This document shows positions 4,456 through 51,802 of a DNA stretch of 64,000 nt, piece after piece (within the stretch, counting starts at the first letter, position 1; each line of letters opens with the position of its first letter). The position numbers and the translations under genes were made by a program. The stretch is from a virus. The stretch spans positions 1 to 64,000 of IMG/VR virus record IMGVR_UViG_3300046660_000239. One strand, given 5' to 3'. The notes under the pieces are model-generated. The model saw only the letters and a list, made by a program, of their open reading frames with translations. It searched no databases and was not told the DNA's origin.

Positions 4456-4989
4456 TTAGGCGGCGCGGTGATATTCGCCGAAATTCTGTTCCGCCGCCGC
4501 AACGTATGCGGCATGAGCGTCTTCAGGCGTTTTGAACCGACCGAGATATTTCTGTTCTCCGTCAATCCATATTGACGAGACCCAGACGAAACTTCCGTCT
4601 CGGTTTTTCCTCCTCCTGGCGCCCTTCAATCCGCTCAAATTGTCGGATCGGTTCTTTCGGTTCATGTTGTTTTGGGAACGCGTTACATCGCGGAGGTTGA
4701 AAATTTTGTTGTTTGTTTCGTCGCCGTCGATGTGGTCGATATGGCCATCTGGCCACCTACCATTGTGAAGCGCCCATACGATTCGGTGAACGGCCAGCTT
4801 TTCGCCCTTGATATGAACGGCGGCGTACTTCTTTGAGCCACCCCTAATCGCCGTTCCAGCAGCGCCTCCGATTTTTACTCGGCTCTGTGAAGAAGTCGGT
4901 TCCTTCCAAAACAATTCGCCCGTATCGCGATATCCAAGGCAGCGTTCTACGAGCTCGAACGTTGCGCGCTCCTCCGCAGGAGTGCCCAT
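4456..4989 (-). CDS. HNH homing endonuclease with AP2 domain
   Basis: 177 residues; ATG 4989 in a TGATG overlap. The HNH_3-type centre is clear: AVHRIVWALHNGRWPDGHIDHIDGDETNN with the H, N and H positions typical of free-standing phage homing nucleases, then RDVTRSQNNMNR. The C-terminal third (WIDGEQKYLGRFKTPEDAHAAYVAA) is an AP2-type DNA-binding domain. Such genes spread between phages by cutting allelic sites. It sits between two small hypothetical genes without disrupting either. Confidence 0.9.
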   Translation of the reverse strand: MGTPAEERATFELVERCLGYRDTGELFWKEPTSSQSRVKIGGAAGTAIRGGSKKYAAVHIKGEKLAVHRIVWALHNGRWPDGHIDHIDGDETNNKIFNLRDVTRSQNNMNRKNRSDNLSGLKGARRRKNRDGSFVWVSSIWIDGEQKYLGRFKTPEDAHAAYVAAAEQNFGEYHRAA

Positions 4990-5282
4990 CACGCTGCTCC
5001 TTCCGTTGGTGTGTTCCGCTTCAGCGGACGACGCTTGGTGAAGTCGACCGGGATGACGTTGTCATCCACGGGCTGCTTGGTGGCGGTCGGCGGCGTAGGC
5101 ACGTCGTCATCATCGATGAGGTCAAGCTCCCATTCGTGGAACTGCAGAACCTCCAACGAAGGCGACACCCGGACGAGGACGATGCTTCCCATGAAGCCGA
5201 TGACGATGCCGAAGACGTTGGTGTTCATCTTGTGCTCGACGACGTCGCCGATGCCGATGCAGTCACAATCGGTGCAGCTCAT
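4989..5282 (-). CDS. hypothetical protein
   Basis: 97 residues, ATG 5282 (ATGA overlap). The N-terminus has CTDCDC, then a compact strand-rich segment (GDVVEHKMNTNVFGIVIGFMGSI), like small KOW/SH3-type barrels that begin with G-D-V-V. The C-terminus is acidic then basic (DLIDDDDVP, FTKRRPLKR). The barrel idea is only an impression from the strand pattern. Confidence 0.65.
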   Translation of the reverse strand: MSCTDCDCIGIGDVVEHKMNTNVFGIVIGFMGSIVLVRVSPSLEVLQFHEWELDLIDDDDVPTPPTATKQPVDDNVIPVDFTKRRPLKRNTPTEGAA

Positions 5283-5724: not shown

Positions 5725-6333
5725 ATGGCCCCCTCTAAATCAAGATTCGCGCAGATGCTTGCGAACGAACAGACCAAGCAGGGCCTGACCGATCGCGAAG
5801 TGGTTGCGAAATACGACTGGCTGCAGCAAACGTTCAGCCGGTGGAAGAGTGGTAGCTTGCCGCGGCAGCACATGTTCGCGTCCATCGGCCAGTTTCTTGG
5901 CGTCAGCACGGAAGCGGTTGCCGAGCTTGTCGAAGAGGCGTCCGCAAGCACTGGCAACACGAAGCTTGCCGCAGCTTACGGCGGCGTCAAGATTTACGGC
6001 AAGGTGACCGACCGCAAAGCCGGCAAGTATGTGTTCGAAGCGTTCAACCAAGGACGTAAGCGCATCCCCGAAGGCCGGTATGCTATCCTCGTGGATACGA
6101 AGGTCATGGAGCCGGCGCTGTTGGTCGGTACGAAGGCATGGCTGGATCCAGCCGTCTGGCCGAAGCCTGGCAACGAGGTGATGGTCCACGCCAAGGGCGG
6201 CGTTGCCTGGCTGGGGCGGCTGGTGTCGTTGGCTGACGCGCTGGCAACCATTGAGGCTGGCGGAAAGGAGATGACAATTCGAGACGTTGAGGCTGTGCAT
6301 GTCATTGTCCTTTCTGAGCGCGTAGCTAAATAA
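5725..6333 (+). CDS. repressor-like protein with degenerate S24/LexA fold
   Basis: 202 residues from ATG 5725. N-terminal DNA-binding helices (LTDREVVAKYDWLQQTFSRWKSG) are followed by a C-terminal segment laid out like the LexA/CI dimerisation-peptidase fold (YAILVDTKVMEPALLVGTKAWLDP, KPGNEVMVHAKGGVAW). Where LexA-type proteins have the catalytic serine (D-S-M-x-P) this one has KVMEP, so self-cleavage is probably lost. It is flanked by copies of the ACAAATTTGT operator at 5694 and 6338, which makes it the best candidate to bind that site. Start codon spacing leaves little room for a leader, so an upstream start remains possible. Confidence 0.8.
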   Translation: MAPSKSRFAQMLANEQTKQGLTDREVVAKYDWLQQTFSRWKSGSLPRQHMFASIGQFLGVSTEAVAELVEEASASTGNTKLAAAYGGVKIYGKVTDRKAGKYVFEAFNQGRKRIPEGRYAILVDTKVMEPALLVGTKAWLDPAVWPKPGNEVMVHAKGGVAWLGRLVSLADALATIEAGGKEMTIRDVEAVHVIVLSERVAK

Positions 6334-6972: not shown

Positions 6973-7704
6973 ATGAGCAAACTTTCAGAGCGCCTTACTT
7001 CGCGAGCCGCCGAACTTAATATTTCACAGACTGACCTGGCCGCTCGTGTGGAGATGTCACAGCCGAGCATCAGTGATTTGTTCGCTGGGCTGACCGCCTC
7101 CCCGAAGAAGTGGAAGGAGATCGCCAGGGAGCTGCAGATCGACGAAAAGGAGATGCTGGCCCTTATACAGGACGCCATTGTCGAGGCTGGCAAAACACAA
7201 CGCATACGCCGAACGATAACCGGAGCGCTGGCCGCCCTCGAGGATAGCCTTGAGCCAAACGGCACGATAGATCCCGCTCCGGTATCGGTATTATCAGGAA
7301 AACCAACGCGCATGCTCCCCGTCTTGGGCGAAGCGGTCGGTGGCGACGACGGACAATATGCATTCAACGGCCAGATCCTCGACTATGTCGCCTGCCCGCC
7401 CTCGCTGACGAACGTGCCGAACGCCTATGCCGTCTGGATCGATGGCGAGTCGATGTATCCGCGCTATAAGTCCGGCGAGCTTGTATATGTGCACCCAGGC
7501 AAGCCGCCGCGGCGCGGTGATGATGTGATCGTGCAGATAAGGCCCAGCGAGGAGTACATGCCGCCGCGTGGCTTCGTTAAAGAGCTCGTCGGCTATCTCG
7601 GCGATAAGCTGGTGCTGAAGCAATACAATCCTGACAGCCGAATCGAATTCCCGCGAGAAGACGTTATAAGCATCCATCCTATAATTTTTTCTGGAAAATA
7701 TTGA
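6973..7704 (+). CDS. CI/LexA-like prophage repressor (S24 peptidase fold)
   Basis: 243 residues from ATG 6973. The N-terminal HTH is SQTDLAARVEMSQPSISDLF. The C-terminal half is an S24/LexA domain with the catalytic serine in GESMYPRYKSGELVYV and the paired lysine expected in the FVKELVGYLGDKLVLK strand. A possible cleavage segment is LGEAVGGDDGQ. Intact catalytic residues suggest RecA-stimulated self-cleavage and SOS induction. TATAGGT sites lie on both sides of the gene, and the operon to the integrase begins 85 bases downstream, so it probably represses that operon and itself. An alternative TTG start at 6949 is less likely. Confidence 0.9.
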   Translation: MSKLSERLTSRAAELNISQTDLAARVEMSQPSISDLFAGLTASPKKWKEIARELQIDEKEMLALIQDAIVEAGKTQRIRRTITGALAALEDSLEPNGTIDPAPVSVLSGKPTRMLPVLGEAVGGDDGQYAFNGQILDYVACPPSLTNVPNAYAVWIDGESMYPRYKSGELVYVHPGKPPRRGDDVIVQIRPSEEYMPPRGFVKELVGYLGDKLVLKQYNPDSRIEFPREDVISIHPIIFSGKY

Positions 7705-16712: not shown

Positions 16713-17113
16713 GCCGCCACCCGCTGGTCAGTGATGATGTTTTCGGAAAGGCGGCGCATCGTATCGACTAGCGGATTGACGAAATCCACTTCGATGCCGT
16801 TCTGTCGACCGAGCTCGATGACGTCGGAAAGCGCCGTCATGAACTCCTTCATGCGGGTTTCATCCGGCGACGGAAGCGCGGCTATGAACGCGTCCATCTT
16901 GCGCAGGATCTCGGCAGGCGTTTTGCCCTTCACCCACTCGTACTTGCTGCCGTATAGAGCGCTCTTGTCTTTCCAAGACATATAGCCCTGCAGCTCCTCG
17001 TTGCCGCGGATATCGAATTCCGCTTTCGGTTCGCGCAGTCCTTTAGCCGACATGGACGCAGGCATGGCGTTAATGCGCTTCTGTACGTCTTCTATGGTGG
17101 TTGGCTTGGTCAT
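16709..17113 (-). CDS. phage protein, paralog of the 3999-4391 gene
   Basis: 134 residues, ATG 17113 after AGAGGAGACTGAA. C-terminal part (MKEFMTALSDVIELGR, FVNPLVDTMRRLSENIITD) almost matches the copy at 3999-4391; the middle differs more, as if one domain is under stronger constraint. The leader hairpin has the same loop as its paralog. Function unknown. Confidence 0.75.
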   Translation of the reverse strand: MTKPTTIEDVQKRINAMPASMSAKGLREPKAEFDIRGNEELQGYMSWKDKSALYGSKYEWVKGKTPAEILRKMDAFIAALPSPDETRMKEFMTALSDVIELGRQNGIEVDFVNPLVDTMRRLSENIITDQRVAA

Positions 17114-17140
17114 TTCAGTCTCCTCTGTGGTGGTAGTGGT

Positions 17141-17165
17141 TGCCGCCGATTGGTGGTCGGCGGCA
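17141..17165 (-). promoter_or_regulatory. leader stem-loop with CCACCAA loop
   Basis: Perfect 9-bp stem (17141-17149 with 17157-17165), RNA loop CCACCAA (17150-17156), then CCACCACAGAGGAGAC before ATG 17113. Confidence 0.75.
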
Positions 17166-17174
17166 GTGGCGTGG

Positions 17175-17369
17175 TTATTCTTCGACGCTGAGAACGGCGT
17201 GCGGTTCGCCGGTCGCTTGGCGGTAGAGGCTTTGAAGCCGCTGGCGCAGTCGCTCCCAAAGGTGCGGCGGCAGGTAGCCGTCCAACTGGCCGCGCGACGC
17301 CATGCCTAACTGGCAATCCTCAAGAACGCCTCGTAGATAGTCGTTTGAAGCGGTCTGCTTCTCGCTCAT
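17175..17369 (-). CDS. hypothetical protein
   Basis: 64 residues from ATG 17369 (GAGGA just upstream, ATGA overlap). Helical and glutamine/leucine-rich (YLPPHLWERLRQRLQSLYRQ). Not recognised. Confidence 0.6.
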   Translation of the reverse strand: MSEKQTASNDYLRGVLEDCQLGMASRGQLDGYLPPHLWERLRQRLQSLYRQATGEPHAVLSVEE

Positions 17370-17566
17370 TCCTCGAATTCCTCCCAGATCGCGACGACCG
17401 GCTGCACTTCCGATGCGCGATAAGCGAAGATTTCGCCCGTCGAGCAATAACCCTCCCCGCCGTATTCGCTCTTCAGGAAGAGGTCGTTGTCCAGAATGAA
17501 GAACCCCGGCCTGCATTCCGCGTATGAGCACGGCCAGCCTTCCGGTTGGATGGTCAGCCGCTTCAT
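17366..17566 (-). CDS. hypothetical protein
   Basis: 66 residues, ATG 17566 in an ATGA overlap with the metallophosphoesterase. Aromatic-rich short strands (GWPCSYAECRPGFFILDNDL). Not recognised. Confidence 0.6.
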   Translation of the reverse strand: MKRLTIQPEGWPCSYAECRPGFFILDNDLFLKSEYGGEGYCSTGEIFAYRASEVQPVVAIWEEFEE

Positions 17567-18819
17567 GCGGCGGCCCTCAGTGGCTCATTGTCGTTAGCGG
17601 CCAAGCGCATAACGCGTGCGGCCGACAGGATGACGCGACCGTCTTCACCAAAATTCTTGTGGTAGGTGATGACTTTTGCCGATCGACCCGACAGCCAGTT
17701 GGATCCGTAGGCGTCCGGCGCTGCCAGCGTCTCATGCTGCTCCACCTTCATCAGGTCGGTTGTTCTCAGCTCGTCGGAATGCTTATGGCCCGTGTGCGCA
17801 TAGCTCATCGCAGTGCGGCCGTAGACCTTGCGGAACTTGCCGACGAGAATGGAGTCGACATTCTTGACGCCGCGTCTGTGACCGTGATGATAGAACAGGG
17901 AAACGTCGCCGTGCTCGATTACGGAGTATGTGCCTGGATTGGTGTCGACCTTGATCCTCGGCTCTTCATCGTAGAAGGCCGCCATCATTTCGCGGAGCCA
18001 GACTTCGCCAGCCGGGTCGTGGTTGGCGTCGCACATGATCACGTCAAGCTGCTCGTGCTTCTCCAGCAGCATGCGGATGACCTTGCGCACGATGCGGATA
18101 GCTGCTCGAACCATTTTGGGGTAACGCGAATCGCTGTCCAGCAGGTTGCCATGTTCCGGCGTGATGCTCTTGAACGAGTCGTAGTGGAGGAAATCGCCGA
18201 GCTGTGCAAACACGGCACGCTTTGCCGGCGGTGATTGGGCGATTGCCGCCGCAAACCAATCGATGATCAGTTGCTCGCCGATGTGCAAATCATAATCGCC
18301 GCCGAGAGTCTCCTCATTCCATGCCAGCGCGCCCAGGTGATGATCCGTGATCGTGTATTGGTTCAGCAGGTCGGCCTCGGTATGGCTCGGCGCCGCCACT
18401 GGCTCCGCACGTGGCAACTCATCCTTGAACGCTTCGACGGCTGCCCGCATCACTGCAAGCTGCTGTTCTGCGTCGGCGGCCGTCTTGATCCACTTTGCGA
18501 TTTCCCGCCCCTGGCCGTCAACTAGAGCGGAAACGCCCTTTACGATCTGGCCGGTAGGGAGCGTGAACACTTCTCCAGGCGCCTTCACCTGCTTCACCCA
18601 CGCGCCGTCTTCGGTCTTGCTGGCGATGCTCTTGATTGCAAACCCCGGCAACACCGGTTTAGTCCCACACATCCCACGCTCCGCCGCAATCTTCAGGCGG
18701 TCGTTAAAAGTGTTCCGCGGAATGCCGAGCAATAGCGCGGCCTCCGTCTTGTTGCGGAGCGCGTCGAACGCGTCGGCGGCTTCTTGGGCTAGTTCATCAC
18801 TGAGTTTGGGGGTGGACAT
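17563..18819 (-). CDS. metallophosphoesterase with N-terminal HTH
   Basis: 418 residues, ATG 18819 after AAAGGAATCC. Residues 1-50 form an HTH (NKTEAALLLGIPRNTFNDRL). The catalytic part follows the calcineurin-like plan in order: ITDHHLGALAW (D-x-H), QLGDFLHYDS (GD), CDANHDPAG (GNHD-like), YHHGHR and AHTGHKHSDE. Phage members are often annotated as phosphoesterases or SbcD-like nucleases. The protein ends LAANDNEPLRAAA, which closely resembles an SsrA tag in composition and position. Substrate is unknown. Confidence 0.85.
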   Translation of the reverse strand: MSTPKLSDELAQEAADAFDALRNKTEAALLLGIPRNTFNDRLKIAAERGMCGTKPVLPGFAIKSIASKTEDGAWVKQVKAPGEVFTLPTGQIVKGVSALVDGQGREIAKWIKTAADAEQQLAVMRAAVEAFKDELPRAEPVAAPSHTEADLLNQYTITDHHLGALAWNEETLGGDYDLHIGEQLIIDWFAAAIAQSPPAKRAVFAQLGDFLHYDSFKSITPEHGNLLDSDSRYPKMVRAAIRIVRKVIRMLLEKHEQLDVIMCDANHDPAGEVWLREMMAAFYDEEPRIKVDTNPGTYSVIEHGDVSLFYHHGHRRGVKNVDSILVGKFRKVYGRTAMSYAHTGHKHSDELRTTDLMKVEQHETLAAPDAYGSNWLSGRSAKVITYHKNFGEDGRVILSAARVMRLAANDNEPLRAAA

Positions 18820-19028
18820 TAGGATTCCTTTGTTCTGGCGGCGAGCATGGCGTCGGCGATGCGATAGGAGCGGTTGGCCAAGTAATGCTCGTCCTTGAAC
18901 AGAGCGGCGTTCTTGTCCAGCATCGAGTGCATCACATTGATTGCGATCTCGTCGCGCAATGTCTTCACCGGCTCATTGTCCGGTATGCCGTCTTCAATAA
19001 TTCCGTAATAGGCTCGTTGTGCGTCCAT
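18819..19028 (-). CDS. hypothetical protein
   Basis: 69 residues from ATG 19028 after GGAGGGTAGG; ends TAATG into the next gene. Helical, with an ALFKDEHYLANRSYRIADAML segment typical of short phage proteins. Function unknown. Confidence 0.6.
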   Translation of the reverse strand: MDAQRAYYGIIEDGIPDNEPVKTLRDEIAINVMHSMLDKNAALFKDEHYLANRSYRIADAMLAARTKES

Positions 19029-19029
19029 C

Positions 19030-19461
19030 CTACCCTCCAATAATCGCTTGCGGCTCAGCCTGCTTCACTTCCGACCCGCCGTGCTGGCCCTCCTCGGCAA
19101 AGCCTGCCGCATCACCGTCCATTGTCAGACCTACGCCAGTGCCGTTAGCCTCCGCCGTATCCAGCGAGTTCTGCAACTCGCCTGCCTTCTGTGCGGAATA
19201 CGGCAACTTGTAGAGGCGTGGCTCCGGCTGGCCGTCGAGCAAGACAAAGATCGCCTCGTCGACATCGATGCGGGCGCCGAGCACGGTGTAGTGGCCCTTG
19301 GCTGGCTGCCAGGGTGCGGCGCGGCCTAACGTGAGGAATGCGGCTGGTGCAGTCAGCGTGGCGATTAGTGCGAAAGCGACGGCCTGCCGCTTGGTGCCGA
19401 ACCACGTTGTTATGGCGGTAGCTAGCACGAAGGCTAGCCATAGGGTGATGGCAGTGGTCAT
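19030..19461 (-). CDS. membrane protein, possible part of the envelope cassette
   Basis: 143 residues from ATG 19461 (TAATG overlap). Two hydrophobic segments near the start (ITLWLAFVLATAITTWFG and AVAFALIATLTAPAAFLTLG) precede an extracytoplasmic domain (GARIDVDEAIFVLLDGQPEP, LYKLPYSAQKAGELQNSL). Lies downstream of the channel/protease genes with overlapping ends. No family recognised. Confidence 0.65.
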   Translation of the reverse strand: MTTAITLWLAFVLATAITTWFGTKRQAVAFALIATLTAPAAFLTLGRAAPWQPAKGHYTVLGARIDVDEAIFVLLDGQPEPRLYKLPYSAQKAGELQNSLDTAEANGTGVGLTMDGDAAGFAEEGQHGGSEVKQAEPQAIIGG

Positions 19462-19697
19462 TACACCCACCCCAAAAACTGGACGCCATCGTTTTCGACT
19501 TCCGGCAACGTATCTGGCTGGTAGTCTTGCAAGCCCTTTACGGAATTCTCCACAATCTTCCGCATCTCACATGCGTAGAACCACGCCCGCATGCCGCCTT
19601 TATAACCGTCTGGCATCGTAGGAGCGGTCTTTAACCACTCATCAATGTCACGTGGGTGCACGGACCAGAAACGATAGGCAAGTTCGTCTATATTCAT
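19461..19697 (-). CDS. hypothetical protein
   Basis: 78 residues from ATG 19697 (ATGA overlap). The stretch RFWSVHPRDIDEWLKTAPTM and RAWFYACEMRKIVENS looks like a small helical protein. Not recognised. Confidence 0.6.
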   Translation of the reverse strand: MNIDELAYRFWSVHPRDIDEWLKTAPTMPDGYKGGMRAWFYACEMRKIVENSVKGLQDYQPDTLPEVENDGVQFLGWV

Positions 19698-19903
19698 GGA
19701 TGCGGCTCCTTCTGCGTGGTTGGGTAAAATGGATGGTTGGCGCGAAGGCGAAAGGGATGGTGCCATGTGACCATGTCACTTGCCTTACGCTCTGCGAACC
19801 CAGCAGGAAGATGACGACCTACAATCTCTTCTGAATCCAACCAGTCCGGCATTGAGAACGGCGCGTCGATTAGCTGGCCGTATCCTGGCGGCGGCTTCGC
19901 CAT
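19694..19903 (-). CDS. hypothetical protein
   Basis: 69 residues from ATG 19903 (TGATG). Proline-rich start (MAKPPPGYGQLIDAPFSMPD), then IVGRHLPAGFAERKASDMV. No family seen. Confidence 0.6.
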   Translation of the reverse strand: MAKPPPGYGQLIDAPFSMPDWLDSEEIVGRHLPAGFAERKASDMVTWHHPFRLRANHPFYPTTQKEPHP

Positions 19904-20442
19904 CACGATTTCCTCTTCATCTGTTTGAAAACTTGGTTCGCGCTATCAGCGACCACCTGCCCATCGGCCACGCGAAACCGGATCGCAGTGCGCTCCTGCC
20001 CGTTCTTCAAGATATCGACCTGCCCGCGCCACACGATGCCGCCGTCTGCCAGCCGAACTTCCACGGCAACTGGGACCGGTGCGGCAAGGCAGGCGTAGCA
20101 GCGGACGTTCACGGCGTACTCGCCATCCGGCAGGCCTCGAGAGAATGCCGATTCGAAATTCAAATCGGAAAGGTCGTTCTTCGTGCCGAGATCATCACGC
20201 AAAAGGCTCCACACAGTCGCCGACTTGTTGCTGTAACCCACCGCGAAGTCGTCGGCGTAGGAGACCCAGAGATCCACGTCCGTGTCGCCCGCTGGCCATG
20301 TGATGCTGGCGATGAGGTTGCCGGGTGGCGATAGCTGTTGTTCGGTGCTGGCGGGATTGACCTGTGCGAGCACGAGGACAACCAGTGCGACGAGGCCGAG
20401 CAGCATGTTGAGCAGTAGGTCGCGGGTGAGGATTGCGGTCAT
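19903..20442 (-). CDS. MotB/ExbD-like single-TM protein with periplasmic beta-sandwich domain
   Basis: 179 residues. The start LTRDLLLNMLLGLVALVVLV is one TM helix preceded by an aspartate (D8), the layout of ExbD/MotB-type partners of ion channels. The rest (ASITWPAGDTDVDLWVSYAD, RDDLG, GEYAVNVRCYACLAAPVPV, VDILKNGQE) looks like a DUF2135-type or Ig-like sandwich, not a peptidoglycan-binding OmpA domain. The MotA/TolQ-like channel gene is two genes upstream in the same operon. Partnership is inferred. Confidence 0.6.
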   Translation of the reverse strand: MTAILTRDLLLNMLLGLVALVVLVLAQVNPASTEQQLSPPGNLIASITWPAGDTDVDLWVSYADDFAVGYSNKSATVWSLLRDDLGTKNDLSDLNFESAFSRGLPDGEYAVNVRCYACLAAPVPVAVEVRLADGGIVWRGQVDILKNGQERTAIRFRVADGQVVADSANQVFKQMKRKS

Positions 20443-20681
20443 GTGGCGGCCTGCACGGTAGCAGCGCTGCGAAGTTCGCCGATAAGGTCAAGGGCGTCAC
20501 CAATCTCAGCCTTCATCTCGCGGATGATCATGTAGCGATATTGGGCTATCTTCTTCCAGCGCTCCACTTCTGAGGCTCCAAACACCGGCATCTCCAATTC
20601 CGCTGTTTCAGTTGCGCTAATCTGCGTGGGGTTTGAGAGGCGGTTAACGTAGCCGACCGGCACCATCTCTACGGTTTCCAT
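20439..20681 (-). CDS. small cytoplasmic protein between the channel genes
   Basis: 80 residues from ATG 20681 (TGATG with the channel gene). The last 40 residues are helical and charged (EVERWKKIAQYRYMIIREM, IGDALDLIGELRSA). Lies exactly between the channel-like and MotB-like genes, so it may be an accessory or regulatory subunit. Not recognised. Confidence 0.6.
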   Translation of the reverse strand: METVEMVPVGYVNRLSNPTQISATETAELEMPVFGASEVERWKKIAQYRYMIIREMKAEIGDALDLIGELRSAATVQAAT

Positions 20682-21127
20682 CACACCACCTCCTTTGCGC
20701 CAACGACCCATGCGACCGTGGACACCCACAGCGCCGCGACAGCGCCCACCAGCGTCGAACAGAAGGCAACGCCCATACCGGCAAGCAGACTTGCCGCAAC
20801 GCGCTGGACGCCCTCGGCTGAGCCGAGCGAACCGGTATCGATGTGCTGCAAGGCAATGATGAAGCCGACGACGTTGCCGATGAGGCCGAGCGTAACCAGC
20901 CAGACTTCAAGCCGTTCCAGATGCGCGGTTCGCCCAAGGAATACGGCAAGCAAGCCGGCCGCCAAGAGCGCGGTAATGCCGTAGCTAATCCGTGACACAT
21001 CATGCGTGAAAACGAATTGTGTATAGCCCATGATCGAGGACCAGACGACAAGCGCGGCCCAGCAGGTGTTGATGATGATGAGGCGGGCGGTGATTGAGGT
21101 GGCTACCGTAGACGCGATGTTGCTCAT
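20681..21127 (-). CDS. MotA/TolQ/ExbB-like proton-channel protein
   Basis: 148 residues with four hydrophobic segments. The last two reproduce the family core: WLVTLGLIGNVVGFIIAL (cf. the G-L-L-G-T-V-x-G motif), a short connection, then VAASLLAGMGVAFCSTLVGA (cf. the AL-x-T-T-x-x-G-L helix). The cytoplasmic regions are much shorter than in MotA or TolQ. These proteins form pentameric channels that use the proton gradient with an ExbD/MotB-type partner. Here the partner would be the 19903-20442 protein. Confidence 0.65.
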   Translation of the reverse strand: MSNIASTVATSITARLIIINTCWAALVVWSSIMGYTQFVFTHDVSRISYGITALLAAGLLAVFLGRTAHLERLEVWLVTLGLIGNVVGFIIALQHIDTGSLGSAEGVQRVAASLLAGMGVAFCSTLVGAVAALWVSTVAWVVGAKEVV

Positions 21128-21261
21128 TGGGCGGCCTCCCGCTTCATCATTTCCTTACCGAGCAGTTCTCCAAGGTACAGAGGCCACCCGACTGATTTCC
21201 AGAACTTGCCTGTTGCCTCGTGGAAGCCGCAAGCGACTCCTGCGTAGATCCAGTAAGCCAT
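21124..21261 (-). CDS. small protein, 45 residues
   Basis: Begins ATG 21261 (one-base overlap with the protease stop) and ends in an ATGA overlap with the channel gene. Sequence MAYWIYAGVACGFHEATGK... has a short hydrophobic start and a charged end (GKEMMKREAAQ). Likely membrane-associated; role unknown. Confidence 0.6.
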   Translation of the reverse strand: MAYWIYAGVACGFHEATGKFWKSVGWPLYLGELLGKEMMKREAAQ

Positions 21262-21968
21262 CACACAGCCCTCCGAGCCAGAAGATCACAGACAACCGAA
21301 GCCGGAACCACAAAGCCGAAGCCAGTCATGGTCGGCGTGTAGGTATCAGCGCCTGCGGCATCCTTCCCAGACTTCAGCGGCGCTAGCGTTACGCCCACGT
21401 TGATGCCGACAATGCGGCCGTCGTTGGCGAATACGCCGCCCCCTGATTGCCCCATGACTGTGGTCATGTCGGTAACGATGACGCGCTTCCAGTTGCCAAG
21501 TTCGCGGCCAGATCCGGCAACCCTGCCGAACGATGCAACAAACTCGATACCGAGCGGATTGCCGATCGCCTGCAACTGCTCGCCGAAGCGTGGCTCGCGG
21601 CAGTCAAGTTCGCTGGAGCCCGAGACGTTGCCGCCGGTATGGATCAGGGCGACGTCGAATTCTTTGTTGATCCAAAGCACATCAGCATCGCCTTCGATGC
21701 CAGCAAATGTCTTAATCTTGACCGTCTTGGCGTCGCCCACGACGTGGGCCGCCGTCAGAATGTTGCCGCTGCCGATATGGACGCCCGAACCCAGTCCGTC
21801 GCCAACGATGATTTTGACGGCCGAGTCTTCAGCCGTGGTCGGCGGCGCCTGGATGATGGTGTTTGTGACCGTCACATATGTCGGCTGGCTTGGCATGGCA
21901 TAGACGCCGCCGACGAGAAGGATGGCGAGCGCGACGATAGCGATTCCGAAATATCTGTAAAATCTCAT
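21261..21968 (-). CDS. membrane-anchored trypsin-like (S1/HtrA-type) serine protease
   Basis: 235 residues from ATG 21968 (GGAGG seven bases upstream; 21971 also possible). An N-terminal anchor (IAIVALAILLVGGVYA) is followed by a chymotrypsin-fold protease with a full triad: H75 in LTAAHVVGD, D105 in EFDVALIHT, S175 in MGQSGGGVF, plus the DIAL-like and GNPLGIEF segments. No PDZ domain follows. It should face the periplasm. First enzyme of the operon that also encodes the channel-like pair; possible roles are envelope surveillance or superinfection exclusion, both inferred. Confidence 0.85.
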   Translation of the reverse strand: MRFYRYFGIAIVALAILLVGGVYAMPSQPTYVTVTNTIIQAPPTTAEDSAVKIIVGDGLGSGVHIGSGNILTAAHVVGDAKTVKIKTFAGIEGDADVLWINKEFDVALIHTGGNVSGSSELDCREPRFGEQLQAIGNPLGIEFVASFGRVAGSGRELGNWKRVIVTDMTTVMGQSGGGVFANDGRIVGINVGVTLAPLKSGKDAAGADTYTPTMTGFGFVVPASVVCDLLARRAV

Positions 21969-21970
21969 CA

Positions 21971-22042
21971 TCACGCCTCCAGCAGTTTGGAGATGTGGCC
22001 AGCGGTTCCCGCTGTGGTCGGCGCATGGAAATATCTGCTCAT
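21971..22042 (-). CDS. 23-residue leader ORF of the protease operon
   Basis: ATG 22042 after AGAGGAGATCAAAG, encoding MSRYFHAPTTAGTAGHISK..., stop overlapping the protease start region. The strong ribosome site suggests translation and coupling to the protease gene. Confidence 0.5.
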   Translation of the reverse strand: MSRYFHAPTTAGTAGHISKLLEA

Positions 22043-22091
22043 CTTTGATCTCCTCTGCTGTGGTGGTGGTTTACCGACTGGAGCCGGCGGA

Positions 22092-22108
22092 ACTAGTTGG
22101 TGGCTAGT
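22092..22108 (-). promoter_or_regulatory. leader stem-loop with CCACCAA loop
   Basis: Short stem ACTAG/CTAGT around TTGGTGG (22097-22103), read CCACCAA in the leftward RNA, then CCACCACCACAGCAGAGGAGATC. Lies between operator site 4 and the first ORF. Confidence 0.6.
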
Positions 22109-22128
22109 GTTATTGACCTTGTTGTGGA

Positions 22129-22144
22129 TTTACAAATTTGTCAA
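22129..22144 (-). promoter_or_regulatory. operator/promoter site 4 (TTTACAAATTTGTCAA)
   Basis: Identical in sequence to site 1. On the minus strand TTGACA (22144-22139) points at the protease/channel operon. The -10 is not obvious. Sits directly after the terminator of the late operon. Confidence 0.75.
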
Positions 22145-22156
22145 ACGCACAAACGC

Positions 22157-22192
22157 AAAAAAGCCGCCTCCCCGGTTAAGGAGAGGCGGCTT
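22157..22192 (-). terminator. terminator of the late operon
   Basis: 10-bp stem AAGCCGCCTC (22161-22170) / GAGGCGGCTT (22183-22192); on the minus strand it is followed by TTTTTTGCG. Placed four bases after the stop of the last late gene. Confidence 0.9.
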
Positions 22193-22195
22193 TGG

Positions 22196-24748
22196 TTATG
22201 TCGTCTGCGCCAATACAGGAGCAGTTTCGTTCGTCAGCGCGAAAGCGTTGGCGAGCAGCGCCGTACGGGCTGCGGGGTAGTTAGCCGCATCTTGGAACGT
22301 GCGATTGTTCTTGATCGCTTCAGCCGCCACTTGGCCAAGGCTTTGCCCGGCCTGCATCGCCGTAAACTCCATGCGCGTTGCACCGAAGGCGACGTGGGAT
22401 GCGGAGAAAGCAAAGCCGACAAAGCCGTTATTGCACTCTGCTACCTTTGGTGTGGCTATCTCCAGCGGCAGTGGGAACATGCCGTCAGAGCCGCCGATAT
22501 CGACTTCCATGCCGCCTTCGCCGGCCACGATCCACTGTCCCGCCGTCTTTTCGTAGGCGATGTATTGGATGGCGTGGCTATCCATGAAGTATGAAATCAT
22601 GGATATTGTGTTGGTCGATATGGACGGCACGCCGCCGTCACCGCGCGTCAATTCCGTGCCCAGCAGCTTCGCCGTGCCGTCGAGCCTCACAGCCTCTCGG
22701 ACATAAAGTTGCGGATTCATGTTGACCGCGTCGTTTTCGTGCGGCGAGAAGTAGTGGTCGGAGCAGAAGCCCCACTGCAGGCAGCTCGCCTGAAGTGCTG
22801 CCGGGATGCGTGGATCCGTACCGTACTGCAAGGTATACAGCAAGCCCATGAACCAATTATGGGTTGCCTTCCAGATCGCCTCACGAACAGACCGCTCGGC
22901 AAGCGGGTAATCCCAATTCTTGCCGATGAAGTCGGAGGATGGAGCGGCCGGGCCGGCGCGGTTGTTCACGTCGTATTTGCCCGGCGTGCCCTGGGTGAAG
23001 TTGTCTGCCTTGAAGTAATCAGTGAAGCTGACAAGCGACGGGTTGGCCGCAGCGAAACGCAAAATGATTTCGTAGTCGGCAACGTCATAGCCTGGCGGAG
23101 GTGTGGATGGCGCCGACCGCTTCCAGATCGGCGACGTCGTCATCGTTGTCCGGAAGTTATACGCCTGAGTCTTTGCATCAGTCGTGCCCGCCGCAGCCAG
23201 GGTATTATATCCTGGCGAAAAGGTAGAGCGGGAAGCCTGAATCATATTGATGAAGCCGCTGCTCGGATCGCCAGGTGTTTTGCAAGGGTCGACGCCAACG
23301 TACTCGTTGAAGGATGCGCGAACACCGTTGTTTGCTTCTGCGCCAGAACCGGCGGCCTCACGGCCGAGGATATAGGAGCAGCCAGCCGCGCGCGCGAAGT
23401 CCATCTCATAGGAGCCATCGAACCAGCCCTTGATCGTAAAGGTGCGCCCGTCGACCGTAGTGAACGAGGTGACCTTTGCGCCGGTCTTCTGGACTGCCAA
23501 AACGCCGTTCGTCTGGTAGATCGGGATCGAGTATCCGCCGTTCTTCTCTGACGTAAGCAGTTCCCTAACAGCCCACTGCATATAGCGGGGATCGAAATAA
23601 TACTGCTCTGTCGGCTTGCTGCCGATCGTCTGGACGCGCTTGGTGAGGTATTTCACCAGCCCGCCGAACGCCGCGGTATTTTCCACATCGCCAAAACCAA
23701 GGCCGCCGGAAGTCATGCCGCCGAAGTTGAAGCGATCACGCCAGCCGCCGACGAGAGCAACCGTCAAGCCATTGCGCGCCGCCTGTAGGCAAGCGAGAGC
23801 CGACTGGACGGTAAACCCGTAGGCGATGAAATCAGCCGTGATGTTTGCCGTGCCAACGCCGACTTCTTCGAGGTAGGCATCACCGTAGCCGACCGCCTCG
23901 AGGTACTCGCCAGCGATGGCAGTAAGCTCGATCTCCTGAGCGTTTGTCAGACCTTTGCCAACGTATGCGAAAGCCAGCCGGCGGGGCGAGAACGAAGACA
24001 CCGCGCCGTTGGCGTTGTGCGCAAGCAAGTAGATGTTCAGGTTGGGCAGCGCCACCGATGCGGCCGCGACCGTGTTCTTGGCAACACCGTTATGCGAGCC
24101 CGATAGGTTGACTGCGTCGAAGCGGCTGCCGCCCGTAAGGCCGTAGCCGTCCGTGTCACCGTCGGCCGAGATAGTCGTCACCGCAGCGGAAGCCAACCGA
24201 ATCGTTTGGTTGTCGTTTGTCGCGCGGCGAGCGCAGATGTTGATGCCCTGCGACGAGGCGTTTATGGCGCCCATGTCGCTGTTTGCACTGCCTGTCGGGT
24301 TTGACGTGCAGTAGACATATGCCCCGAGGTCGTTCTGGTCTAATTCATTGGCGTTGAGGTTGGTGTTGATCGCCTGCCCGTTTGTCGTAGCCGTCCAGCC
24401 GAAGGAGGCATTGAAGCCAGGCGTGCTGATTTTTACACCAGTTCTTGTAGGGTCCGTCCACCAGCGCAGGGCAGCATTCTCGTCTGCGCCAACCGCCATG
24501 ATCATCTTGGCCTTAGCCCAGATGCCTGATGTCTTCAGGCGCTTGATCGCGCGATTGATTGTCCGCTTACGGTTTGCCGTGGGCGGCGTCGAAAATGCCG
24601 CCGCTAGTGTGTTGGTCTCGGTTTCATAGGAGTATAATTGGAATACAGGAGATGAGCCACCACCCCCCGTGGGGATACCTCGCGCTCCCAAGGCGATCAG
24701 GGCGCCAAGCGACACCCCGCGCCTCAAACTCGTTTTGAGCCCCGCCAT
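22196..24748 (-). CDS. large virion-type protein: lectin-like N-terminus plus FAD-oxidoreductase-like domain
   Basis: 850 residues from ATG 24748 (TAAC-ATG). Residues 1-290 resemble the concanavalin/LamG-like modules of phage tail proteins (ALRWWTDPTRTG, LNIYLLAHNANGAVSSFSPR, KGLTNAQEIELTAIAGEYLE). From about 300, DFIAYGFTVQSALACLQAAR, LTVALVGGWRDRFNFGGMTS, and near the end IATPKVAECNNGFVGFAFSAS, MQAGQSLGQVAAEA follow the order of the FAD_oxidored family. The dinucleotide-binding glycines are degenerate (G-F-T-V-Q-S instead of G-x-G-x-x-G), so FAD binding is uncertain. Last late gene; likely virion or lysis-stage product. Confidence 0.65.
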   Translation of the reverse strand: MAGLKTSLRRGVSLGALIALGARGIPTGGGGSSPVFQLYSYETETNTLAAAFSTPPTANRKRTINRAIKRLKTSGIWAKAKMIMAVGADENAALRWWTDPTRTGVKISTPGFNASFGWTATTNGQAINTNLNANELDQNDLGAYVYCTSNPTGSANSDMGAINASSQGINICARRATNDNQTIRLASAAVTTISADGDTDGYGLTGGSRFDAVNLSGSHNGVAKNTVAAASVALPNLNIYLLAHNANGAVSSFSPRRLAFAYVGKGLTNAQEIELTAIAGEYLEAVGYGDAYLEEVGVGTANITADFIAYGFTVQSALACLQAARNGLTVALVGGWRDRFNFGGMTSGGLGFGDVENTAAFGGLVKYLTKRVQTIGSKPTEQYYFDPRYMQWAVRELLTSEKNGGYSIPIYQTNGVLAVQKTGAKVTSFTTVDGRTFTIKGWFDGSYEMDFARAAGCSYILGREAAGSGAEANNGVRASFNEYVGVDPCKTPGDPSSGFINMIQASRSTFSPGYNTLAAAGTTDAKTQAYNFRTTMTTSPIWKRSAPSTPPPGYDVADYEIILRFAAANPSLVSFTDYFKADNFTQGTPGKYDVNNRAGPAAPSSDFIGKNWDYPLAERSVREAIWKATHNWFMGLLYTLQYGTDPRIPAALQASCLQWGFCSDHYFSPHENDAVNMNPQLYVREAVRLDGTAKLLGTELTRGDGGVPSISTNTISMISYFMDSHAIQYIAYEKTAGQWIVAGEGGMEVDIGGSDGMFPLPLEIATPKVAECNNGFVGFAFSASHVAFGATRMEFTAMQAGQSLGQVAAEAIKNNRTFQDAANYPAARTALLANAFALTNETAPVLAQTT

Positions 24749-24749
24749 G

Positions 24750-25064
24750 TTACGCGGCAATCCACTGGAATTTATCGTTCGGCTCGGCGTAGACGTCGTA
24801 GTCTGTTGCGGCCGGGACGAGGAATCGCTTGCCGCTTGTTGCGTCTGGAGCCGGGCCTACCGATACCCAGGAGTCAGCTGCGGCGCGAATGCGGAACATC
24901 GGCTGGCCGGAGCCGTCGCTGCCGTTCGGTGCGAAATTGGTGGACGTAACGCCGGTCGACGGCGCTTCGGTCCACGCAATCTTGCCGAGGATCGCCTGCG
25001 ACTTGTCGCGCGCAAAAAGGGAGCCTGCGAAACCGCAAACGACGTGAAGGCCTGCAAATGCCAT
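24750..25064 (-). CDS. hypothetical small late protein
   Basis: 104 residues, ATG 25064 after AAGGAGACCACT. Contains strand-rich RIRAAADSWVSVGPAPDATS and FLVPAATDYDVYAEPNDKF, a pattern common in phage structural or decoration proteins. It immediately precedes the large lectin/FAD-like protein, so the two may be partners. A short leader hairpin (25077-25091) precedes it. Confidence 0.65.
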   Translation of the reverse strand: MAFAGLHVVCGFAGSLFARDKSQAILGKIAWTEAPSTGVTSTNFAPNGSDGSGQPMFRIRAAADSWVSVGPAPDATSGKRFLVPAATDYDVYAEPNDKFQWIAA

Positions 25065-25076
25065 AGTGGTCTCCTT

Positions 25077-25091
25077 CGCGCTGGGTGCGCG
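25077..25091 (-). promoter_or_regulatory. short leader stem-loop
   Basis: CGCGC (25077-25081) and GCGCG (25087-25091) with RNA loop ACCCA, preceded by CACCACCACAC-type sequence and followed by AAGGAGACC. Same architecture as the CCACCAA hairpins. Confidence 0.5.
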
Positions 25092-25122
25092 TTGTGTGGT
25101 GGTGTTTTGGTGGTGGTGTCGG

Positions 25123-25464
25123 CTAAGCGCGCGTGGTTGGCCGCTTGACCTGATTTTCGACGATGCGATCGACGCGGGCCGTCATGTGATCCACGGCAGT
25201 CTTAACGCCATGGATCGCTTCCATAATCTGGTCGGTAGTCTCACGAAGTCCCTGCTTGGAGACATACTGCTCGGCAACGTGCAGGCGGTGCGCGGCAAGG
25301 TCAGACCTTACCGATGCCGCCTCAACAGCGGCCTCTGTGGCCTTCTGGACGGCCTCGGCCTTGGCTCGGTCCACTCGTCCCTCGATGCGCCACCAGACGC
25401 CCCAGAGGGCGCCGGAGATCGCCATGAAGAACATGACAACGGCCATTAATTCGGTGCCTGTCAC
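25123..25464 (-). CDS. membrane-anchored coiled-coil protein, possible holin-associated
   Basis: 113 residues from GTG 25464 (GTGA overlap). One N-terminal TM (LMAVVMFFMAISGALWGVWW) and then a long helix (RVDRAKAEAVQKATEAAVEA, TTDQIMEAIHGVKTAVDHM). The position after the spanin genes suggests a lysis-cassette member such as a holin-like or antiholin protein; unproven. Confidence 0.6.
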   Translation of the reverse strand: MTGTELMAVVMFFMAISGALWGVWWRIEGRVDRAKAEAVQKATEAAVEAASVRSDLAAHRLHVAEQYVSKQGLRETTDQIMEAIHGVKTAVDHMTARVDRIVENQVKRPTTRA

Positions 25465-25772
25465 TTCTGCACCGCCTTGCCCTCAAGGCCAGCATCACGG
25501 TCAGCATAGAAATCCCGCAGCGCCATGTGGCGCCTGGCACAAGACAGCAGTCGCTCGCGGTCGGTAATCCACAAGTGCTCAAGCTGCGCCTGCGTCAGCG
25601 GCTTGTCGCCGAGGTCGACCGGGCCAAGACACTTCGTCGTCAGCGCGCTGTCCGCCTTCCGCAACACTGGCGGAGGCGGCACCACAACAAGCCTATCGGA
25701 CCTTGTTAATGCGCTGCACGCTGGGAGCACCGATAGCAGTGCGGCCAGCATCAGGATCTTCGCTGGCTTCAC
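25461..25772 (-). CDS. o-spanin (Rz1-like lipoprotein)
   Basis: 103 residues from GTG 25772, starting inside the i-spanin gene in another frame. Signal peptide MKPAKILMLAALLSVLPAC ends in a lipobox (LPAC), followed by a proline-rich stretch (VVVPPPPV). Overlap with an Rz-like gene and lipoprotein signal are the hallmark of Rz1. It is longer than typical Rz1. Joins inner and outer membranes in the last step of lysis. Confidence 0.8.
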   Translation of the reverse strand: MKPAKILMLAALLSVLPACSALTRSDRLVVVPPPPVLRKADSALTTKCLGPVDLGDKPLTQAQLEHLWITDRERLLSCARRHMALRDFYADRDAGLEGKAVQK

Positions 25773-26088
25773 GCTGCAGCTCCTCGATTTGTATTGTTAG
25801 TTGGTCGGCCTCGGCCTGCATCGCGGCGATGCGCTCCGCCTCACGCGCCTTGGCTTCGTTCTGGCGCGCAGCCTGGCGCTCGACTTCGGCGTTGCGTGCC
25901 GTAACGGCGGCGGCGTGCTCGGCTGCGATCTGCGCCTCATATTTTACGGATGCAGCCTGATAGCCGCTGTCGTAGATCGTGCTGTGGATCCACCAGCCGC
26001 CGAGGCCGATAGCGGCAAGAAGCGCCAGCACAGCAACAGCGCCGACGATCCACTTGTCGATGCCCAAGATTTTCGCGATCCACATCAT
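25693..26088 (-). CDS. i-spanin (Rz-like)
   Basis: 131 residues, ATG 26088 (ATGA overlap with the endolysin). One N-terminal TM (IVGAVAVLALLAAIGLGGWW) and a long periplasmic coiled coil (AEHAAAVTARNAEVERQAAR onward). With the overlapping lipoprotein gene it makes the two-component spanin. Confidence 0.8.
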   Translation of the reverse strand: MMWIAKILGIDKWIVGAVAVLALLAAIGLGGWWIHSTIYDSGYQAASVKYEAQIAAEHAAAVTARNAEVERQAARQNEAKAREAERIAAMQAEADQLTIQIEELQREASEDPDAGRTAIGAPSVQRINKVR

Positions 26089-26897: not shown

Positions 26898-27893
26898 TCA
26901 CAGGCGCTTCTTGAGAGCCTTGATCAGATTTCGTGCTAGCGCATATCGTTGGTAGGAGAAGTTCAGTAAGTGCATTTTTGCGATATACAATTTATTGCGA
27001 GCAAAGCCGAAGACGGTACGATGCGGATAGATGTAGCGCGCAACAGGATAGTAATATCGTCCGAATGGGAATTCTTCCCATTGGCTCTTGAAAAGAACTT
27101 CCCAATTCGCCTTCCATTCTGGCACGGTCGCAAAGGCTTGGGCGTAATGGTCATAAAGCCGTGATAGCCCGAAACCCACCCGCCGCCATTTAGTCTTATC
27201 CTGGACCTTGATCTTGGCGGCGTAATAGTCGAGTTGAACCATGATATCGTTCGGGTCCAACGACTTGAGAAAATTTCCACTATGAGTTCGGATGGCGCAG
27301 GTTTCTATGTCTATGCCGTGCACGAGGTAATCTCGCGATATTCTGCGCCAGAGGTCTGTGTCTTCAAACCTAGTTTGAGCTGTATCGAACGCTCCGGCCG
27401 CGCGGATGATGTCCGCGCGGACCATAACCGTTGGTAGAGCTATTGTTACAGGGCGGAAGAAGGCCACCTTATAATAGATATCTCCAGAGGCGGTCGCATC
27501 GTAGCGGCCCGGCAACGGAACTCCGTCGCCATCAATATGGGTCGCCGCGGTATAGATCATCGCTACTTTCGGGTTCTCTCGCAGATACTTGACCTGCATC
27601 TCCAGCTTACCTGGCAGATATAGATCGTCACTATCGTTGAACGCGATAAACTCTCCAGTGGCGAAAGCTAAGGCCATGTTTCGCGATTTTGACCGCCCAC
27701 TGTTCGTGCTTGGGTAAACTCTGAGCCGCCTATCATTGATTGTCGACAGCCTAGCAAGGGTGTCATCTGCCGAGCCATCATCAACAACCAGCACTTCTAT
27801 ATCTTCAAACGATTGATTAAGCACACTTGCGACTGCATCAACAATGAAATCCGCACGGTTGTACGTTGGAATGATGACACTGACTGCTGGCAT
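26898..27893 (-). CDS. family 2 glycosyltransferase
   Basis: 331 residues, ATG 27893 after GAGGAGCTAA. A GT-A fold start (SVIIPTYNRADFIVDAVASV), VLVVDDGSADDT, the D-x-D region FNDSDDLYLP and later FEDTDLWRRIS identify a GT2 enzyme. The C-terminus is basic with aromatic residues (YPVARYIYPHRTVFGFARNK), as in membrane-associated sugar transferases. Local GC is lower than in neighbours, suggesting recent gain. It sits between a beta-helix tail protein and the lysis genes; it may modify host surface glycan or the virion. Confidence 0.9.
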   Translation of the reverse strand: MPAVSVIIPTYNRADFIVDAVASVLNQSFEDIEVLVVDDGSADDTLARLSTINDRRLRVYPSTNSGRSKSRNMALAFATGEFIAFNDSDDLYLPGKLEMQVKYLRENPKVAMIYTAATHIDGDGVPLPGRYDATASGDIYYKVAFFRPVTIALPTVMVRADIIRAAGAFDTAQTRFEDTDLWRRISRDYLVHGIDIETCAIRTHSGNFLKSLDPNDIMVQLDYYAAKIKVQDKTKWRRVGFGLSRLYDHYAQAFATVPEWKANWEVLFKSQWEEFPFGRYYYPVARYIYPHRTVFGFARNKLYIAKMHLLNFSYQRYALARNLIKALKKRL

Positions 27894-50725: not shown

Positions 50726-50741
50726 TCTACAAATTTGTCAA
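50726..50741 (-). promoter_or_regulatory. operator/promoter site 7
   Basis: TCTACAAATTTGTCAA; minus-strand TTGACA, 16 bases, TAAAAC as -10 (four of six). Drives 50675. The last codons and stop of the homing nuclease (RLTNL*) are read from this same site. Confidence 0.75.
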
Positions 50742-51596: not shown

Positions 51597-51802
51597 CACT
51601 TCCCCTTTGGCCAATTTGCTGGCCTGTAGCCTTCGGCATAGGCGGTCAACAACAAGGCAAGCAGGCTGGGCACCGCGCGCGGATTTGTGTGCCGTTCGTA
51701 GCTAGATATCTGAAGCGCCTTGGCGTAACCAAGAACGCCAGCAAGCTCGACCTGTGTAAGGCCGAGCTGCTCACGGATTGATTTGAATTCGTCGTTGGTC
51801 AT
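51596..51802 (-). CDS. Xre-family HTH regulator
   Basis: 68 residues. SIREQLGLTQVELAGVLGYA and LQISSYERHT are a Cro/C1-type HTH; the rest (VPSLLALLLTAYAEGYRPAN) is short. Overlaps its neighbours by ATGA-type junctions. Likely binds the repeated sequence in the promoter at 52003-52049. Confidence 0.85.
   Translation of the reverse strand: MTNDEFKSIREQLGLTQVELAGVLGYAKALQISSYERHTNPRAVPSLLALLLTAYAEGYRPANWPKGK

What the first reader, a model, noticed from the sequence alone, without database searches (positions are those of the whole stretch)
19030..22042. Envelope cassette: trypsin-like protease plus MotA/TolQ/ExbB-like channel and one-TM partner in a phage operon
A phage operon encodes a membrane-anchored S1 protease with intact H75/D105/S175, a MotA/TolQ/ExbB-like membrane protein, a MotB/ExbD-like protein with a periplasmic beta-sandwich and several tiny proteins, all with one-base or ATGA overlaps and its own operator. 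It sits outside the structural operon. Proton-channel pairs are known in defence (Zorya) and in envelope machines, but I know of none coupled to an S1 protease in a phage. Roles such as superinfection exclusion or envelope defence are inference.
Basis: partly seen in the sequence, partly recalled or inferred. Interest (0 to 1): 0.8.

Follow-up and report, generated by a model that had tools for sequence, protein, structure and literature searches.

The report
Phage-borne minimal proton-channel motor operon
A bacterial virus of rhizobia carries a three-gene set that looks like a stripped-down proton-driven membrane motor, together with a secreted protease; the same three genes recur in many unrelated phages and in the chromosomes of many alphaproteobacteria, and no function has been described for them.

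Summary
On the minus strand, 21974-19030, lie an S1 protease with an intact triad, a MotA/TolQ/ExbB-like channel, a one-helix partner with a periplasmic beta-sandwich, and small genes. All are start-stop coupled, behind a conserved operator.

Tools change the picture in four ways.
(1) The window is a relative of Rhizobium phage 16-3; the cassette is its unrecognised p036-p042.
(2) The conserved unit is not protease plus channel. It is a three-gene module: A (MotA-like), B (MotB-like, with the transmembrane Asp in 80 of 83 sequences) and C (the 146-aa protein). Order is kept in 79 of 82 viral loci. The protease is linked in 37 of 82.
(3) The module is also found in 60 of 385 sampled alphaproteobacterial genomes, in many as a chromosomal operon; phage and cellular copies intermix in the tree.
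(4) The operator is shared with the terminase and replication operons, so expression probably belongs to lytic growth. That weakens a lysogen-defence reading.

Channel homology is solid. That B and C complete a proton-driven 5:2 motor is a strong inference. Its job is not shown; my best guess is envelope work during infection. Zorya membership fails on two tested features. This is a new variant of a known kind.

The parts
22156..22193 (-). intrinsic-terminator-like hairpin that separates the upstream operon from the cassette
   Evidence: sequence AAAGCCGCCTCTCCTTAACCGGGGAGGCGGCTTTTTT read on the minus strand
22128..22145 (.). operator-like palindrome TTTGACAAATTTGTAAA, overlapping a TTGACA (-35-like) hexamer
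   Evidence: core ACAAATTTGT has 9 perfect copies in the window; the 15-base pattern with up to 3 mismatches gives 19 matches against 0.75 expected; conserved upstream of the protease in most 16-3-like loci and in 16-3 itself
21971..22042 (-). possible 23-aa leader peptide (MSRYFHAPTTAGTAGHISKLLEA), stop overlaps the protease start (TGATG)
   Evidence: sequence
21261..21971 (-). S1 (trypsin-like) protease with N-terminal signal or anchor; triad H77/D107/S177 in the 237-aa ORF numbering; two conserved Cys (C125, C229)
   Evidence: PF13365 E 7.8e-21; phrog_9683 E 1.4e-52; conservation; lipobox in 8 of 39
21124..21264 (-). 46-aa ORF, GTGA/ATGA coupled; accessory, conserved only in near relatives
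20681..21127 (-). module gene A: minimal MotA/TolQ/ExbB-like channel subunit, 148 aa, four hydrophobic segments, about 9-residue TM2-TM3 loop
   Evidence: PF01618; PDB profile hits to MotA/ZorA/TolQ/ExbB; pore positions 85 T/N in 81/81 and 125 T/S in 80/81
20439..20681 (-). small soluble ORF between A and B (METVEM...); variable, replaced by homing endonucleases or other ORFs in relatives
19903..20442 (-). module gene B: one-TM MotB/ExbD-like partner, conserved TM Asp8, periplasmic beta-sandwich with DVDLW and LLRDDLG motifs
   Evidence: D8 in 80 of 83; AF2 pLDDT 92.5, helix 2-28 plus 8 strands
19694..19906 (-). 70-aa ORF, accessory
   Evidence: no confident family match
19461..19697 (-). 78-aa ORF (MNIDEL...), accessory
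   Evidence: no confident family match
19030..19461 (-). module gene C (p146): two TM helices then a small alpha/beta domain, probably periplasmic
   Evidence: next conserved gene after B in nearly all viral and chromosomal loci; AF2 pLDDT 83.2, helices 3-23 and 27-47, domain about 59-126
18819..19040 (-). 73-aa ORF, coupled to the next gene
17563..18819 (-). phrog_704 'DNA repair exonuclease' (metallophosphoesterase motif in many relatives), end of the coupled run; common in 16-3-like loci, not part of the core
   Evidence: phrog_704 E 1.9e-110
5725..6333 (+). candidate regulator of the cassette: ortholog of 16-3 p070 (57% identity), gene flanked by two copies of the operator (5697, 6341)

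Best explanation
The cassette encodes a phage-borne, minimal relative of the ion-driven 5:2 membrane motors. A is the channel ring (MotA/TolQ/ExbB-like), B the one-helix axle with the proton-relay Asp and a new periplasmic beta-sandwich head, and C a third inner-membrane subunit. Proton flow through A/B should move the B heads in the periplasm. In 16-3-like phages the unit is co-transcribed with a secreted or lipid-anchored S1 protease and is under a p070-type repressor together with lytic operons. I propose that it does mechanical and proteolytic work on the cell envelope during productive infection, and that the module has been exchanged repeatedly with an alphaproteobacterial chromosomal operon. 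Shown: homology of A; the conserved Asp and pore residues; the three-gene unit; chromosomal counterparts; the shared operator sequence. Inferred: stoichiometry, proton use, co-transcription, regulation by p070, and the envelope role.
For: Channel homology. TM Asp in 80/83 B proteins. Pore-site T/N 81/81 and T/S 80/81 in A. Confident beta-sandwich model of B. Three-gene order in 79/82 viral loci; A in 39-40 and C in 38 of 40 sampled chromosomal loci with B. Present in four unrelated lineages of named Rhizobium/Sinorhizobium phages (16-3-like, N3_13-like, Pootjesviridae, I1_18) and in no other named phage at the sensitivity of tblastn. B in 60/385 alphaproteobacterial genomes. Chromosomal monophyly rejected, p-AU 8.6e-5. 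Operator shared with terminase and replication operons. Periplasmic protease features: signal sequence, lipobox in relatives, conserved Cys pair.
Against: No biochemical or genetic data. B has no ExbD/TolR/MotB family match and its fold has no PDB match at E <= 0.001. The A/B complex was not modelled. The protease is not found with the module in most distant phages. In 16-3 the cassette lies in the part described as silent (PMC10460002), so it may matter only outside the laboratory.
Confidence: 0.5

Rival explanations
1. Superinfection exclusion or antiphage defence: a phage-carried Zorya-like sensor motor that detects envelope perturbation by a second phage and triggers an effector (protease or the exonuclease-like gene).
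For: A resembles the channel segment of ZorA. A protease and an exonuclease-like gene are in the same coupled run in 16-3-like phages.
Against: No ZorA-type tail, no OmpA-like domain on B, and no constant fourth gene across the 82 viral or 40 chromosomal loci. The operator is shared with the terminase and replication operons, which suggests silence in the lysogen. Several carriers are not 16-3-like temperate phages.
Confidence: 0.2
2. Lysis helper: a late envelope-disrupting device that assists endolysin and spanins.
For: In 16-3-like phages the cassette lies downstream of endolysin and Rz-like genes (endolysin cluster in 27 loci; phrog lysis hits).
Against: In other lineages the module sits among DNA-metabolism genes: beside exonuclease and endonuclease I in N3_13, beside a late sigma factor and SbcCD-like genes in Pootjesviridae. 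Lysis genes are separate from it, and the chromosomal copies read have no lysis context.
Confidence: 0.13
3. Decoy: the small A/B proteins poison a host motor (flagellar stator, Tol or ExbBD) by mixed assembly.
For: A is a stripped-down homologue lacking the large cytoplasmic domain. Reduced motility or Tol function could benefit a phage.
Against: B and C are conserved as a set with A, the relay Asp and pore residues are kept, and the same operon is chromosomal in many bacteria; none of this is expected of a pure inhibitor.
Confidence: 0.1
4. Envelope-transport auxiliary: B and C energise uptake or export of a substrate (ExbBD/SiiAB-like) that the Rhizobiaceae host cannot otherwise handle.
For: The operon is nearly absent from Rhizobiaceae genomes (5 of 298; four of these five lie among phage genes, the fifth was not resolved), so the phages bring a function that other alphaproteobacteria have. 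A lipoprotein gene follows C in 8 of 40 chromosomal loci.
Against: No TonB/TolA-like transducer recognised and no constant outer-membrane partner in the neighbourhood.
Confidence: 0.07

Closest known systems
Rhizobium phage 16-3 p036-p044 (NC_011103), AP-16-3, NV1.1.1, RHph_TM3_3_14B, RHph_X2_25
   Same: Same gene order protease - A - B - C - exonuclease-like; same operator upstream of the protease in 16-3, AP-16-3, NV1.1.1 and TM3_3_14B.
   Different: Nothing essential; only the protease and exonuclease are annotated there, A, B and C are p038, p040, p042 or hypothetical proteins. Small accessory ORFs and homing endonucleases between the core genes differ; X2_25 lacks the exact operator.
TolQR / ExbBD
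   Same: Non-flagellar A subunit; one-TM B with a membrane Asp; A gene precedes B; A profile matches TolQ and ExbB in the PDB.
   Different: A has almost no cytoplasmic domain; B carries a beta-sandwich instead of the TolR/ExbD fold; no TolA/TonB recognised; a third subunit C of a different kind.
MotAB / PomAB flagellar stators
   Same: Four hydrophobic segments in A, pore-like T/N and T/S positions, Asp near the cytoplasmic side of the B helix; best PDB match of A is MotA 8gqy, 5.2e-8.
   Different: No FliG-contacting cytoplasmic domain in A, no OmpA-like peptidoglycan-binding domain in B, no flagellar context.
Zorya ZorAB
   Same: Channel segment of A matches ZorA models.
   Different: A is 148 aa without the long ZorA tail; B has no ZorB match; no ZorC/D/E found among the proteins scanned.
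phrog_9683 protease / HtrA-DegS-like S1 proteases
   Same: Family and catalytic triad; also in phiM9, P10VF, N34.
   Different: No PDZ domain matched in the 237-aa protein; two conserved Cys; beside a motor module.

Membership tests
MotA/TolQ/ExbB channel family (PF01618) | Sequence match to the curated model above its cut-off | tested here: met
   23.5 against 22.9 bits for the window protein; 35/43 members match, best 5.5e-10; PDB profile hits
MotA/TolQ/ExbB channel family (PF01618) | Polar residues in the two pore helices | tested here: met
   position 85 T43/N38, position 125 T72/S8/V1 of 81
5:2 ion-driven motors | One-TM partner encoded next to the channel gene, with a conserved acidic residue in its membrane helix | tested here: met
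   D8 in 80/83; order A-B-C in 79/82 viral loci, set kept in at least 38 of 40 chromosomal loci
5:2 ion-driven motors | Five channel subunits around two partners; ion-driven motion | not testable with these tools
ExbD/TolR or MotB partner family | Sequence or fold of the periplasmic domain (TolR/ExbD fold or OmpA-like) | tested here: not met
   no such Pfam match in 43 members at E <= 0.1, no such PDB sequence match, beta-sandwich model without PDB fold match at E <= 0.001
Zorya | ZorA with long cytoplasmic tail | tested here: not met
   protein is 148 aa; only the channel segment of ZorA models matches
Zorya | ZorB partner | tested here: not met
   no PADLOC ZorB match for the window protein; beta-sandwich instead
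Zorya | ZorC/ZorD or ZorE effectors nearby | tested here: inconclusive
   no ZorC, ZorD or ZorE match among the ten proteins scanned against PADLOC; other neighbours were clustered but not scanned against PADLOC
S1 trypsin-like protease | Family match and intact His-Asp-Ser | tested here: met
   PF13365 E 7.8e-21; H77 and S177 invariant 39/39, D107 Asp in 32 and Glu in 7
16-3-like phage group | Shared cassette order, C-repressor and p070 orthologs, shared operator | tested here: met
   window 6973-7704 = C (51%), 5725-6333 = p070 (57%); cassette order; operator

The most novel reading that the evidence does not exclude
Phages encode and use a complete, minimal proton-driven 5:2 motor of a family not yet described (channel ring A, Asp-bearing axle B with a beta-sandwich head, third subunit C), exchanged repeatedly with an uncharacterised chromosomal operon of alphaproteobacteria, to do mechanical work on the envelope of the infected cell. 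It would be the first ion-driven motor known to be carried by viruses as a conserved module.
Probability: 0.5. Interest if true: 0.9.

Novelty: new variant of a known kind. Interest (0 to 1): 0.74.

Why it matters
Ion-driven 5:2 motors power flagella, outer-membrane maintenance, nutrient import, gliding and Zorya defence. The evolutionary studies searched here name no viral one (PMC12204202, PMC12505986, searched by term only), and library searches found none. A unit of about 1.8 kb with an A subunit of about 130-190 residues would be among the smallest such machines. Because unrelated phages of the same hosts carry it, and because it is also chromosomal in many alphaproteobacteria, it gives access to an unknown envelope process. 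The classic phage 16-3 of Sinorhizobium meliloti makes it directly testable.

Tried and rejected
Zorya membership: rejected on the A tail and the B domain. Protease plus channel as the conserved unit: rejected, the protease is linked in 37/82 loci and was found elsewhere in only 3 of 45 records that lack it nearby. Lysis cassette: weakened by gene context in other phage lineages. C-repressor control of the operator: the ACAAATTTGT core differs from the annotated 16-3 C operators (ACAA-N4-TTGT and similar); p070 is the better candidate. Metallophosphoesterase as a fourth core gene: common in 16-3-like loci but in only 4 of 40 chromosomal loci, all from one closely related group. Fold matches for B (DUF4425, Ca-bound Parabacteroides protein, MmpS5) and for C: all E > 0.001, not used. 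Weak Pfam matches of B to DUF2135 and TerD: one member each, leads only. phrog_1735/phrog_16549 match only the beta-sandwich of some B proteins inside larger phage proteins of unknown function. Rfam: no hit in 17000-26000. MotA hits in two phage papers were unrelated uses of the string. Phage 16-3 repressor papers and the Zorya structure paper are not held.
Full report
WHAT IS THERE. The window is part of a 67,154-base IMG/VR record. On the minus strand between about 22.2 and 17.6 kb lies one run of coupled genes: a possible 23-aa leader (22042-21971), an S1 protease (to 21261), a 46-aa ORF (21264-21124), a 148-aa membrane protein A (21127-20681), a small soluble ORF (20681-20439), a 179-aa one-helix protein B (20442-19903), two small ORFs (19906-19694; 19697-19461), a 146-aa ORF whose likely ATG at 19461 starts the membrane protein C (19461-19030), a 73-aa ORF and a phrog_704 'DNA repair exonuclease' (18819-17563). 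Neighbouring genes overlap as TGATG, GTGA, ATGA or TAATG. A terminator-like hairpin (22193-22156) and an operator-like palindrome (22128-22145) precede the run.

THE PROTEASE. It matches Trypsin_2 (E 7.8e-21) and phrog_9683 (E 1.4e-52). H77 and S177 are invariant in 39 sequences; position 107 is Asp in 32 and Glu in 7. Two Cys (125, 229) are kept in 38 of 39. The N-terminus is a hydrophobic signal or anchor, and 8 of 39 have a lipobox. A periplasmic, membrane-held location follows as an inference.

A IS A MotA/TolQ/ExbB-TYPE CHANNEL SUBUNIT. The single-protein match is marginal (23.5 against a cut-off of 22.9 bits) but the family is clear: 35 of 43 diverse members match PF01618, best 5.5e-10, and the profile finds MotA 8gqy (5.2e-8), ZorA (1.5e-5), TolQ (7.5e-5) and ExbB (2.4e-3) among solved structures. 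G84 and G128 are invariant, position 85 is T or N in 81 of 81, position 125 T or S in 80 of 81. Hydropathy gives four segments, with a TM2-TM3 loop of about nine residues, so the large cytoplasmic domain of MotA is missing.

B IS THE PARTNER. It has one helix with Asp8, conserved in 80 of 83 sequences; many read F.DLLFNLL.GF. AlphaFold2 gives helix 2-28 and an eight-strand beta-sandwich at mean pLDDT 92.5. Motifs DVDLW and LLRDDLG are nearly invariant. No ExbD/TolR/MotB family match was found and no PDB fold match reaches E 0.001. C is predicted as two helices plus a small alpha/beta domain (pLDDT 83.2) without a known fold; the positive loop between its helices suggests a periplasmic C-terminal domain (inference).

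THE CONSERVED UNIT IS A-B-C. Profile searches of IMG/VR and the named phages gave 82 distinct loci with B. A, B and C occur in this order on one strand in 79 of 82, median span 1,773 bases. The protease is linked in 37. Its profile was found elsewhere in only 3 of 45 records lacking it nearby. Many records are fragments, so absences are soft, and profile E-values after iteration are inflated; the synteny is the independent support.

NAMED PHAGES. Among 50,697 phage records, tblastn with several queries finds B in 27, all Rhizobium or Sinorhizobium phages. The extra one search hits in enterobacterial phages cover only about 20% of the query at E > 0.001; I take them for other proteins that share part of the domain. 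The 27 fall in four unrelated groups: 16-3-like temperate phages; N3_13, I3_11 and N3_19; Pootjesviridae; and I1_18. In Pootjesviridae the triad lies beside a late sigma factor and SbcCD-like genes, far from the protease, which is beside head genes. phiM9 and KZY1 have the protease but no B. Co-occurrence of protease and module is therefore real but confounded by shared hosts.

CHROMOSOMAL COUNTERPARTS. B occurs in 60 of 385 sampled genomes of the class of G045, a Rhizobium, 31 of 297 of its order, 5 of 298 of its family and 17 of 398 of its phylum. Of the five Rhizobiaceae loci, four lie among phage genes homologous to the window, several with tail genes; the fifth (L177) was only read over 3.6 kb. 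In 40 further regions fetched, B is always present, A in 39-40 and C in at least 38, and where the neighbours can be read they look like housekeeping genes (my reading of the sequences). Eight regions have a lipoprotein-like gene after C. A tree of 123 B proteins needs at least 8 phage/chromosome changes (3 forced by strongly supported branches), and one clade of all chromosomal copies is rejected (p-AU 8.6e-5; quick tree, some long branches). So genes have moved between phages and chromosomes more than once; the direction is not shown.

REGULATION. ACAAATTTGT has nine perfect copies in the window: two flank the gene 5725-6333, which is the ortholog of 16-3 p070 (57%), one precedes the cassette, one (47824) precedes the terminase gene, others precede further operons. 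16-3 has seven, one upstream of p036 and one upstream of p070; its annotated C-repressor operators are different sequences. The site, exact or with one change, stands upstream of the protease in 24 of 27 16-3-like loci (my count). Control by the p070-type protein, and hence expression in lytic growth, is an inference. The AP-16-3 paper assigns a silent region to this group, ending between excisionase and repressor genes (PMC10460002); the cassette falls within it.

MECHANISM. The simplest reading is a small proton-driven motor: ring A, axle B, accessory C, with the B heads acting in the periplasm. The envelope role during infection is my inference from location, the linked protease, and the lack of a constant cytosolic effector. 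Zorya is excluded as a family on the tail of A and the domain of B, though a Zorya-like manner of working is not excluded.

NOVELTY. The components belong to a known superfamily. The axle domain, the third subunit, the viral carriage and the chromosomal operon appear undescribed in the literature that could be searched; that library holds only openly licensed papers.

Noticed in passing
window 22196-24760 (-): An 854-aa protein with a strong FAD-dependent oxidoreductase match (PF12831, E 8.1e-42) sits between the lysis genes and the cassette, an unusual function for a phage in that position; relatives carry other genes there (for example an SGNH hydrolase in TM3_3_14B).
   Followed up: no
window 5697, 6341, 13731, 22132, 47824, 49888, 50729, 55724, 62027: Nine copies of the palindrome ACAAATTTGT, many near operon starts: a phage-wide regulon, probably of the p070-type regulator and distinct from the C-repressor operators.
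   Followed up: partly
window 21971-22042 (-): A 23-aa possible leader peptide whose stop overlaps the protease start; a similar start may exist in another frame of L009 and L015.
   Followed up: no
L178, L179, L180, L182, L183, L228-L230: Chromosomal A-B-C operons followed by a lipoprotein-like gene of about 231-262 aa; in L178-L180 and L182 they lie next to a RodA-like cell-shape gene.
   Followed up: partly
L022, L023, L024: The same protease family stands alone beside the head genes of Pootjesviridae, on the opposite strand.
   Followed up: partly
L015:9408-10166, L016:8800-9342; window 4456-4992, 39889-40824, 50727-51614, 60953-61441: Homing-endonuclease genes invade the cassette in relatives (Seg-like between A and B, HNH after B), and proteins that look similar by sequence are scattered in the window.
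   Followed up: no
window 26898-27893 (-): A glycosyltransferase-like protein by sequence reading, between the tail genes and the endolysin; not searched.
   Followed up: no
L014:7625-8524: The 16-3 protease p036 has a C-terminal extension of about 55-60 residues absent from the other relatives.
   Followed up: no
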